A stretch of 64,000 bases of DNA from Bryobacterales bacterium. Lineage in GTDB: Bacteria; Acidobacteriota; Terriglobia; Bryobacterales; Bryobacteraceae. The notes below the pieces were generated by a model. It was not told where the DNA came from, searched no databases, and worked only from the letters and a program-made list of their open reading frames with translations. Position numbers and translations under genes: made by a program. Below are positions 35,157 to 55,279 of this stretch, one piece after another (within the stretch, counting starts at the first letter, position 1; each line of letters opens with the position of its first letter). The stretch is taken from contig JANXXL010000131.1 of assembly GCA_025350625.1 (NCBI GenBank), positions 1-64,000 on the forward strand. The letters are read 5' to 3'.

Positions 35157-35378
35157 ATGACTCGCAAAGCCAGTGTGCTGATCGAAAAAGACGAGCATGG
35201 GTTTTACGCTTCGTGCCCGGAACTCAAGGGCTGTCAGTCGCAAGGGGCAAGCATCGAGGATGCCTTGGCAAACATTCGCGAAGCAATCGAACTGTATCTG
35301 GAAACGCTGCCACCAGATGAGCGGGATGCATTGCTGAGCCGCGAGATCCTCACCACCTCCGTTGAGGTGCATGCCTAA
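35157..35378 (+). CDS. hicB: HicB-family antitoxin
   Basis: 73 aa; MTRKASVLIEKDEHGFYASCPELKGCQSQGASIEDALANIREAIELYLETLP. Confidence 0.92.
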   Translation: MTRKASVLIEKDEHGFYASCPELKGCQSQGASIEDALANIREAIELYLETLPPDERDALLSREILTTSVEVHA

Positions 35379-35576
35379 ACCCCTCGGTGGACTGCCCGCG
35401 AAGCGGAAACGGCGCTATTAGCTGCGGGTTTCCACCTACTGCGATCAAAAGGTAGCCACCGAATCTACGCAAAGGGAACACGTCGGGTGGTCGTCCCCTT
35501 TCATGCGGGTGCCGTGCTTCATCCTAAGATTGTGAAGCAGACCCTCGAAGCACTCGATGAAACGCGAACCGGGTAG
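35371..35576 (+). pseudogene. hicA: HicA-like toxin, frameshifted near its N-terminus
   Basis: ATG at 35371 overlaps hicB stop; zero frame gives MPKPLGGLPAKRKRRY*; the -1 frame reads WTAREAETALLAAGFHLLRSKGSHRIYAKGTRRVVVPFHAGAVLHPKIVKQTLEALDETRTG*, classic HicA. Confidence 0.87.
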
Positions 35577-35877
35577 ACTCTCAACAGTGACGTGAAACTC
35601 GTGATGCGCTGCAAGAATTAGGGAGCGCTCCCTCCAAAAAAATCGGCGCATAAAAAAACAGGTTTGTGACGATTCTCTTTGCTTACACATTTGCTCACAC
35701 CATTGGCCTCCATAGCAGTCATGATGCCCAAAAGGCCGACCCGCATCCACGCAGAATCGGCCAGTTACGGCGGGACTACCTCGGGCGAGAATCGGGTTCG
35801 CTTCCCGTTAGCGGTTTCAATTCCTCCTCATTTAGCTCTGGCAGAATCCCTGGCGGCGCCCGGAAACGCAACGATAT

Positions 35878-35979
35878 TCAGACGCCATCGCCAGCCTGGT
35901 AGCGGGCTACTTCTTCCATGAGACGGCCCCGCTTGTCAACAAAAATCTTCCCCGCTTCAACCCAGGCTTCCATACGCAT
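35878..35979 (-). CDS. Possible 33-aa ORF or gene remnant next to IS110
   Basis: MRMEAWVEAGKIFVDKRGRLMEEVARYQAGDGV*; amphipathic helix-like; no RBS verification. Confidence 0.25.
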   Translation of the reverse strand: MRMEAWVEAGKIFVDKRGRLMEEVARYQAGDGV

Positions 35980-36134
35980 TCAAGTGAGCCTGTTTGCGAC
36001 TAGGCTCGATGCAAGATGAATTCAGGGTCGAAGTCCGGCGCTGTCTTCTACTTTACGAGCTCGAAGCTCAAGCCCACTAGCGCAGTCGCCGGAACGTTCG
36101 GGTTTACTCAACACCGCAATGGTCAAGACAACTT

Positions 36135-37190
36135 TCACACCATCTTAGGAAAGGGTTTGTAGAACTCGCCGCTTACCCATAAGCGGTGCAGCAGCACGGA
36201 TAGCTTGCGGGCCACCGCGACAATCCCCCGCAGCGTAGCTTTCTTTCCGCCTTCGGTTTTAGCCAAGCCCCATCGGCGTAGCGCCGAGTCCTTGCCCCAA
36301 TGTCCCAGGACGTGATGTGCGCACTGCACCAATAACTTGCGCAAGTATGGATCGCCGCTCTTGGCGATCCCTAACTGGGGATCGTGCGCACCGCTCTGTT
36401 TCTGCCTGGGCCGCAGTCCCAGAAATCCCGCTACATCGCGGCTGTGCGCGAACCGCTCGGGCCGCCCTAACGTCAATGCGAAAGTCAGGGCGGTGAGGGT
36501 GCCCACGCCCGGAATGCTGGTCAATCGTTTTACTTCTGGATGCCATTGCTCGGCCAACTCGCCGATGCGCTGATCATAGTTGCCGATGTGCTGGCTCAAC
36601 GCGTCGATGTGCCGCAGTAATCCTTCCAGCGCCGTTCGCAACATCGCGGGCAGATCCGCCAACGCCCGTTCTCCGAACGTGCCGGTAATCGACTTAGGCA
36701 GGCGTACGCCGAACCCCTTGGCGATGCCGCGCGCACTATTGATCAGCAGCGTACGTGCTCGCAGGATCGCATCCCGCGCCCGTATCACGGCTAGTTGGGC
36801 TTGTTGTTCGGCGGTGCGGTGCTCCACAGGAGCCAGCAGTTGTACGTCGGCCCGGGCAAGAAGCGCGAGTTTCCTCGCATCGGCCGAATCGTTCTTGGTG
36901 TCGCTGGCGGTGATCCACTTTAGCTTACGCGCGTTGGCCACGATTACTTCATGACCCAACCCCTTCAGTTCCCGGCTGATCCAGGCCGACTGCGCCCCCG
37001 CTTCCAGTGCAATCCGCCGTGGCTCTCCGCTGAAATGTGTTGCCAGCGAACTCGCCTGGTTACGGAAACTGCCTTCTTCGACGACCTCACCCTCTCGGTT
37101 CACGACGCAGTAGCGGCTCATCTTGTCGCCCAAATCAATACCAATCGTCTCGGCCGGCATTCGCTTTCCCGCTTTGCTAAGCTTCTTCAT
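36135..37190 (-). mobile_element. IS110-family transposase/recombinase (DEDD + Transposase_20), apparently intact
   Basis: 351 aa; TIGIDLGDKMSRYCVV, ALEAGAQSAWISREL, NDSADARKLA, SIPGVGTLTALTFAL...GIAKSGDPYLRKLLVQCAHH. Confidence 0.95.
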
Positions 37191-37310
37191 GGCTGGTTTC
37201 TCCTTTGCACCTCATCGAGTGCGTTCCACAGCTTATCGCTGTATAAGGCGAGTCAGCCGTCTCATCCCATCTTCTTTGAAATTCCGCTTTCTTTCGGCGG
37301 ATCGCAGTAA
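37191..37310 (-). ncRNA. Candidate IS110 bridge-RNA-like structured leader (boundaries not determined)
   Basis: Three consecutive hairpins on - strand: TCCGC(N9)GCGGA 37283-37301; ACAGC(N5)GCTGT 37228-37242; GCAC(N8)GTGC 37207-37222, all 5' of the recombinase ATG. Confidence 0.4.
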
Positions 37311-37314
37311 CGGT

Positions 37315-37566
37315 CTACCAACCATCCCCAAAAGACATCCCTCCACATAGTGCGAACACACAAACATTCCAGAACCAAATGAGGAGAATCAAATCGCGAA
37401 CGGCGTGGCTAACAGAGACAATAGGAGTAAACCCATATATGCAGGCAACCGCAGCACTGGTCAATACCAGCAGCCCGGCTGAGATTCTTGCTCCTGGAAT
37501 GAACTTGCGGGCTCGCTCCATTCCGAAGTAGTAATTTCTGCGTGCTTGTTTCAGTTCGATTAGCAC
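37315..37566 (-). CDS. Small hypothetical membrane protein
   Basis: 83 aa with two hydrophobic segments; C-terminus ends beside the IS110 leader. Confidence 0.45.
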   Translation of the reverse strand: MLIELKQARRNYYFGMERARKFIPGARISAGLLVLTSAAVACIYGFTPIVSVSHAVRDLILLIWFWNVCVFALCGGMSFGDGW

Positions 37567-54079: not shown

Positions 54080-55198
54080 CTACCACAACACGCGCTCCAG
54101 CGCCTCGCAGAAAAAGTATTCGCCCCACATCACGGATTCATCCACGCCCAGCCCTTTATGCACGTGATACACGCCGCCTTTGAGGATGCCTTGCCATTTG
54201 GGATCGCGCTTTCCTAGATGCTTTTCACAGAGCGACCGCAAAATGCGCACCGCTGTCGACCAATAGAGGTGCCCCTTCATTGAATCCGGCACCAGACGGC
54301 ACAGGCGCAGGAGCCCAGCCGCATAAATCGCCGCCGCCGAGGTATCGAGCAAGGTCCGGTTCTCGGCGGGCGCGTTGAAGTCCCAAGGCGGTATGCCGTC
54401 GCTCGGCGAATGCGTGATATAAAAATCGGCGCACGCTTGTGCGGTTTCAAGGTAATGCGGGTCGCGGCTGTATTCGTAGACGGTGGCGAAGCCGTACATA
54501 GCCCAGCTCAAGCCGCGCGACCAGCAGGAATCGCCGCGATAACCCTGATGGGTCGTTTGATGCAAAAATTCGCCGGTATCGGTGTCAAAAACCCCTTCAT
54601 GTCCGGTGGAACCGTCGCCACGAACGAGAACGCGCCGCGTGGTCCGCGCATGGCGCAGGGCGATATCGCGCAATTTGCGATCGCCGCTCTCGCGCGCGGC
54701 ATAGAGAATGATGCCGACGTTCATCATGGTATCGATGAACACCGAGTTGTCGGCCACGAAAGAACGTAAGTAGCCGCCCTTCTCCTTGAAACGCATGGCC
54801 AGCGTGCGTCCGGCTTCGATCAGCACGTCGCGGCGCGCGGGATCGGGGTGGAGGCGATGCCAGCGATAATAGGTCGACAGAAATAGAAACCCTAAATCGT
54901 GTGCGTCGCGATCTTTCTTCCGCGGCTCGATGGGTTCGGTGTAGCGCACGGCGTTTTCGTACCAGAACTTCGCTTCCGCTGAATCAGGCTCGGCGTGCTT
55001 GTAGAAGATCCACATCATGCCGGGCAGGAAGCCGTCGGACCAGTGAGTCCACACCTGGCCTTCATGCTTCCACTCGCCGTCTTTGGTATGCAGGGGATAC
55101 AGCATGGGGTGCTTCTCGATCAGTTTGCGGACCTGGCGCTGCGCGAATTGGTAGGAGTGCGTGAATAGTTCCCCGGTGTCGCTCGAAAGGTGAATCAT
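54080..55198 (-). CDS. Glycoside hydrolase family 88 (unsaturated glucuronyl hydrolase-like)
   Basis: ORF 54080..55657, likely start MIHLSSDTGELF; HDLGFLFLSTYYRWH; GYRGDSCWSRGLSWAMYGFA; DTSAAAIYAAGLLRL. Confidence 0.85.
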   Translation of the reverse strand: MIHLSSDTGELFTHSYQFAQRQVRKLIEKHPMLYPLHTKDGEWKHEGQVWTHWSDGFLPGMMWIFYKHAEPDSAEAKFWYENAVRYTEPIEPRKKDRDAHDLGFLFLSTYYRWHRLHPDPARRDVLIEAGRTLAMRFKEKGGYLRSFVADNSVFIDTMMNVGIILYAARESGDRKLRDIALRHARTTRRVLVRGDGSTGHEGVFDTDTGEFLHQTTHQGYRGDSCWSRGLSWAMYGFATVYEYSRDPHYLETAQACADFYITHSPSDGIPPWDFNAPAENRTLLDTSAAAIYAAGLLRLCRLVPDSMKGHLYWSTAVRILRSLCEKHLGKRDPKWQGILKGGVYHVHKGLGVDESVMWGEYFFCEALERVLW

Positions 55199-55279
55199 GT
55201 AGTGCCTATCATTATAGGCTCGCCATCGCGCGCAGTCCGCCGGACGAACCGGCTTAGCGGATCTGCTACGATCAAAAAA

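What the first reader, a model, noticed from the sequence alone, without database searches (positions are those of the whole stretch)
36050..37400. Apparently intact IS110 element with a hairpin-rich leader: candidate bridge RNA
Seen: full-length IS110 recombinase on the - strand with a non-coding 5' leader (37191-37314) holding three consecutive stem-loops: TCCGC-cgaaagaaa-GCGGA (37283-37301), ACAGC-gataa-GCTGT (37228-37242) and GCAC-tcgatgag-GTGC (37207-37222). Established: IS110-family elements (for example IS621) express a structured bridge RNA from a non-coding end that programs target and donor recognition. Inference: this leader is all or part of such an RNA. Element ends and core dinucleotide could not be fixed by eye. 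It sits between the broken hicA and two small membrane-protein ORFs.
Basis: partly seen in the sequence, partly recalled or inferred. Interest (0 to 1): 0.62.

Follow-up and report, generated by a model that had tools for sequence, protein, structure and literature searches.

The report
RNA-guided insertion sequence, RNA at 3' end
This is a complete copy of a known kind of jumping gene whose insertion site is chosen by a small guide RNA, but the guide RNA lies downstream of the recombinase gene, not in the hairpin-rich leader upstream; the leader instead looks like a fold that hides the gene's ribosome-binding site.

Summary
The recombinase gene (36135-37190, - strand) and the three hairpins are real. 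The element's ends, fixed by comparison with about 30 relatives, are 37272 and 35915 (1,358 bp, core dinucleotide AG). Hairpin 1 (37283-37301) therefore lies outside the element, and only about 81 nt separate the left end from the ATG. The element has a 10-bp subterminal inverted repeat, a short left end and a 220-nt right end: an IS1111-group element. A covariance model built from 23 relatives, without this sequence, finds the bridge/seeker RNA downstream of the gene at 35960-36111 (82.9 bits, E 5e-20) and nothing in the leader. Across relatives its loops match each element's own flanks (0 of 20,000 permutations for either side). The window's target loop spells AAAGT-AG-CCC(A/G)CTA; that motif recurs in this genome just after genes, and lies at the right junction, offset by 6 bp. 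The leader's two inner hairpins belong to a conserved fold whose closing helix pairs the left repeat region with the Shine-Dalgarno region (0 of 500 permutations), so it probably limits translation; an RBS-masking 5'-UTR is already known for ISPpu9.

The parts
35915..37272 (-). IS1111-group element, 1,358 bp, counted with one AG core at its left end (37271-37272); the second AG is at 35913-35914
   Evidence: Alignment with L004, five copies of a relative in G338 and ends across about 30 relatives
36135..37190 (-). DEDD recombinase (transposase), 351 aa; conserved residues D19 (GIDLGD), E63 (LEAG), D101/D105 (KNDSADA) and GL-P----SG (GLRPRQKQSG)
35960..36111 (-). bridge/seeker RNA, covariance-model match over all 153 model positions
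   Evidence: 82.9 bits, E 5e-20; fold supported by covariation in relatives
36071..36079 (-). target guide, 5' side of loop (UAGUGGGCU); pairs with AGCCCGCTA
36048..36054 (-). target guide, 3' side of loop (AAAGUAG); matches the left target plus core
35967..35973 (-). donor guide (AUGGAAG), same sequence as the right end plus core (CATGGAAG)
   Evidence: covaries with the right end in relatives, 0 of 5,000 permutations
37256..37265 (-). left subterminal inverted repeat ATGAGACGGC
   Evidence: Sequence
35918..35927 (-). right subterminal inverted repeat GCCGTCTCAT, exact reverse complement of the left one
   Evidence: Sequence
35934..35939 (-). outward -35 box TTGACA, 19 nt from the core; would act with a -10 (GAAGAT) formed across the circle junction
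   Evidence: TTGACA (5 or 6 of 6) at 19-20 nt from the core in 27 of 28 relatives
37271..37272 (-). core AG, left copy
   Evidence: AG/AG in most relatives, AA/AA in one subgroup
35913..35914 (-). core AG, right copy
37191..37272 (-). left end and mRNA leader; closing helix P1 = 37254-37258 with 37191-37195, extended towards the Shine-Dalgarno AAGGAGA (37199-37205)
37228..37242 (-). leader hairpin P2 (ACAGC-gataa-GCTGT)
   Evidence: covarying arms in relatives
37207..37222 (-). leader hairpin P3 (GCAC...GTGC)
35900..35914 (-). AGAAGTAGCCCGCTA: core AG, then the guide-predicted target AAGT-AG-CCCGCTA displaced 6 bp from the right end

Best explanation
An intact-looking IS1111-group (IS110 family) insertion sequence. 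In the excised circle, joining right and left ends creates a promoter (TTGACA in the right end, -10 across the AG core) that transcribes the leader, the recombinase gene and, at the 3' end, a roughly 150-nt bridge/seeker RNA. One loop of the RNA carries two target guides that pair with opposite strands of the site AAAGT-AG-CCC(A/G)CTA; a second region pairs with the element's own end (ATGGAAG). The recombinase uses both to exchange strands at the AG core. The upstream hairpins are not the guide RNA: they form a conserved mRNA leader whose closing helix pairs the left repeat region with the ribosome-binding site and probably keeps recombinase translation low. Shown here by comparative sequence analysis: ends, core, repeats, RNA position and fold, guide-to-flank matching, leader pairing. 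Inferred: transcription, RNA binding, activity of this copy, translational effect.
For: Ends and AG core. Model R1, built from 23 relatives without this sequence or its closest relative, hits 35960-36111 with E 5e-20. Five helices with 94% of cells paired and 15 pairs with two-sided changes, 0 of 500 shuffles reaching any measure. Guide-to-flank matching on relatives: right 168 against 115 +/- 5.8, left 126 against 85 +/- 5.4, 0 of 20,000 each. Donor guide covaries with the right end, 0 of 5,000. In the G338 relative, five copies sit in a REP-like site that its loop spells. TTGACA-like -35 at fixed distance in 27 of 28. Leader helix P1: 0 of 500 permutations. R1 also finds an RNA 3' of the gene in ISAzs32 (E 2e-6) and weakly in IS4321 (E 0.007). 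The organisation matches published IS1111 elements (PMC11187229, PMC11208160).
Against: The window's right flank fits the guide 9 of 9 (one wobble) only when shifted 6 bp (4 of 9 at the junction itself), so this insertion or a later change was not canonical. Single copy in the genome, with no empty site found in relatives. The -10 across the junction is weak (3 of 6). Pairing of the RNA with the left-end donor side was inconclusive (328 of 5,000). No expression data; the genome is a fragmented assembly.
Confidence: 0.94

Rival explanations
1. The upstream leader (with hairpins 1-3) is the bridge RNA, IS110/IS621 style.
For: It is structured (z -2.9), and IS110-group elements keep the RNA upstream (PMC11208160).
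Against: Element starts about 81 nt before the ATG with hairpin 1 outside; no model match in the leader; leader does not clearly track the target; a full RNA with working guides lies on the 3' side.
Confidence: 0.02
2. The leader pairing reflects DNA-level constraints (extra repeats for recombinase binding at the left end), not mRNA folding.
For: The 5' arm of P1 overlaps the inner part of the left repeat, which is constrained by the right repeat anyway.
Against: The 3' arm next to the ATG and the Shine-Dalgarno region changes with it (0 of 500), P1 extends into the Shine-Dalgarno, and P2 and P3 arms covary; ISPpu9 has a tested RBS-masking 5'-UTR (PMC8450116).
Confidence: 0.25
3. This copy is a dead or damaged element: the 6-bp offset at the right junction marks an aberrant event.
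For: Right junction reads CATGGA-AG-AAGT-AG-CCCGCTA with 6 extra bases; single copy; two relatives (L008, L012) also show duplicated right-end tails.
Against: Open reading frame, motif residues, repeats, RNA and -35 box are all intact. A natural target variant with extra AAG units would look the same.
Confidence: 0.25

Closest known systems
IS1111 group of the IS110 family (ISEc11, ISPa11, ISKpn4, IS4321), with seekRNA/bridge RNA
   Same: Short left end, long right end, subterminal inverted repeats, RNA downstream of tnp, top-strand guide 5' of bottom-strand guide, junction promoter, hairpin-like repeated targets
   Different: Recombinase is diverged (28% over the matched part to IS4321); the relatives at about 50% identity or more come from the one phylum that was searched for them; own target motif
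IS110 group (IS621, ISCro4)
   Same: Same recombinase domains; weak but clear match to the solved ISCro4 and IS621 proteins; RNA-guided
   Different: There the RNA is upstream in a long left end; here the left end is about 81 nt without it
ISPpu9 tnp 5'-UTR (PMC8450116)
   Same: RBS proposed to be hidden by mRNA leader structure; AG core repeat; element sits in repeated palindromes
   Different: ISPpu9 has a 244-nt leader and an antisense sRNA; here the leader is about 80 nt and no antisense RNA was examined

Membership tests
IS1111 group (IS110 family) | DEDD recombinase with Transposase_20 domain and GL-P----S(T)G motif | tested here: met
   (GLRPRQKQSG)
IS1111 group (IS110 family) | Subterminal inverted repeats of 7-17 bp | tested here: met
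   10 bp exact, 37256-37265 and 35918-35927
IS1111 group (IS110 family) | Short left end, long right end with a structured guide RNA downstream of tnp | tested here: met
   About 81 nt against about 220 nt; RNA at 35960-36111
IS1111 group (IS110 family) | RNA segments matching both strands of the target, top-strand match first | tested here: met
   Across relatives; in the window itself the right match is offset by 6 bp
IS1111 group (IS110 family) | Circular intermediate with a promoter formed at the junction | not testable with these tools
   Only the conserved -35 and its spacing were seen
IS110 group (IS621 type) | Bridge RNA in a long left end upstream of the gene | tested here: not met
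RBS-masking transposase leader (as ISPpu9) | Leader fold pairs with the ribosome-binding site | tested here: met
   Predicted and covarying
RBS-masking transposase leader (as ISPpu9) | The fold lowers translation | not testable with these tools
   Needs reporter fusions

The most novel reading that the evidence does not exclude
IS1111-group elements share a compact mRNA leader in which the left inverted-repeat region itself pairs with the Shine-Dalgarno and pre-ATG sequence, so the DNA end recognised for recombination doubles as a translational lock. One subgroup (L033 type) masks the start codon with the outermost bases of the left end, which a junction-promoter transcript would probably lack.
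Probability: 0.45. Interest if true: 0.45.

Novelty: new member of a known kind. Interest (0 to 1): 0.3.

Why it matters
It adds an acidobacterial branch of RNA-guided recombinases with ends, core, guide RNA and target worked out computationally, including five genomic copies of a relative that confirm the guide rule. It also corrects a natural misreading: structured leaders upstream of IS110-family genes need not be the bridge RNA. The leader helix gives a directly testable idea on how these elements keep recombinase levels low.

Tried and rejected
Rfam: no match at gathering over the whole window nor at E 1 over 35880-37420. The genome-contig scan gave only the already close relative and one fragment; viral contigs gave none. 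Empty site in 100 related genomes: not found. Second R1 hit in the window at 55060-55257 (12 bits, E 0.11) taken as chance. Left-donor guide covariation was not significant; the RNA segment was picked wrongly in at least two sequences of that test (L006, L039). Leader as guide RNA rejected. No AlphaFold run: the family assignment did not need it.

Full report
Observation. The window holds a full-length IS110-family recombinase, 36135-37190 on the - strand, in a genome of 417 contigs where it is the only copy.

Ends. The closest relative (88% protein identity; L004, the same contig as L002) aligns from window 37272 to about 35913 and then stops on both sides. About 30 further relatives, mostly at 40-54% identity, share the same left end (AG-ATGGGATGAGA) and right end (CTCATRGA-AG), with unrelated DNA outside; one complete genome (G338) has five copies in different places. 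The dinucleotide next to both ends is AG in most and AA in one subgroup, at both ends together, which marks it as the core. In the window the core copies are 37271-37272 and 35913-35914. Hairpin 1 is outside the element. The left non-coding part is about 81 nt, the right one about 220 nt, and the 10-bp subterminal repeats are exact.

Guide RNA. The relatives' right ends share invariant blocks (GACTGCG, GCAGC, GCA, TGCGNATRGAA). From 23 of them, leaving out the window and L004, an alignment, fold and covariance model were made. The fold has five helices; 93.9% of cells pair against 82% in shuffles, and 15 pairs show two-sided changes. The model finds the window at 35960-36111 with 82.9 bits, E 5e-20, over its full length, and only noise in the leader. 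It also finds an RNA just 3' of the gene in ISAzs32 (E 2e-6) and, weakly, in IS4321 (E 0.007).

Guides. After GACTGCG the RNA complements the core plus right flank; before the GCAG block it repeats the left flank plus core. Over distinct relatives the match is far above that with flanks dealt at random (right 168 against 115 +/- 5.8, left 126 against 85 +/- 5.4; 0 of 20,000 each). In G338 all five copies sit in GCGGCTTY-AG-CCGCTGAGG, a REP-like palindrome, and the loop reads CUCAGCGGCU and GCUUCAG. The RNA's AUGGAAG (AUAGAAR in others) covaries with the right end (0 of 5,000); the corresponding left-end pairing was not significant.

Target of the window copy. Its loop predicts AAAGT-AG-CCC(A/G)CTA. 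TTCAAAGTAGCCCNCT occurs four times exactly in this genome, against about 0.01 expected from base counts (my estimate), with no exact hit for the reversed control, and in 5 of 23 genomes of the genus. The four copies lie within about 50 nt downstream of reading-frame ends, read from the gene as GGTAGYGGGCTACTTTGAA, a short terminator-like hairpin (inference). At the window the left flank is TTTCAAAGA-AG and the right side AG-AAGT-AG-CCCGCTA: the guide fits 9 of 9 (one wobble) when moved 6 bp and 4 of 9 at the junction. A target variant with extra AAG units, or a small insertion during an aberrant event, would both explain this; no empty site was found.

Leader. The window leader folds with P1 closing two hairpins. 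In relatives the 5' arm (inner left repeat) and the 3' arm (Shine-Dalgarno to pre-ATG) match each other better than arms exchanged between elements (sum -317.6 against -255.3 +/- 10.2 kcal/mol; 0 of 500), in several reaching 10-11 uninterrupted pairs that include part of the Shine-Dalgarno. P1 alone on the alignment pairs in 90.6% of cells against 82% in shuffles. P2 and P3 arms covary. Similar pairing can be read in ISAzs32 and IS4321 (by eye). ISPpu9 has a tested leader of this kind (PMC8450116), so the principle is known. A -35 box TTGACA lies 19-20 nt before the core in 27 of 28 relatives, consistent with the junction promoter described for IS1111 elements (PMC11187229).

Verdict. A well-supported new member of the IS1111 group.

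Noticed in passing
window 35376-35576 (+): HicA-like frame (Pfam HicA_toxin 1.2e-11) follows a HicB-like antitoxin gene directly but has no ATG/GTG/TTG start, so hicA looks inactive or uses a rare start.
   Followed up: partly
G000 (L082-L095), window 35900-35908: TTCAAAGTAGCCC(A/G)CT recurs in this genome just downstream of genes and in other genomes of the genus; probably a small terminator-like or REP-like repeat.
   Followed up: partly
L008, L012 (right ends): The right end is followed by a short duplicated tail (21 bp and 14 bp) before the guide-matched target, reminiscent of the 6-bp offset in the window.
   Followed up: partly
L033, L034, L035, L042, L065: Subgroup with core AA instead of AG and a very short leader in which AUGGGA at the outer left end can pair with UCCCAU over the start codon.
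   Followed up: partly
window 35679-35822: The flank near the right end is 71-85% identical to stretches in three related genomes (G019, G030, G009; L071-L073), unexplained.
   Followed up: no
L006, L011, L015, L037 (right ends): Extra palindrome-rich DNA of roughly 100-350 bp lies between the guide RNA and the right end in several relatives, possibly inserted repeats.
   Followed up: no
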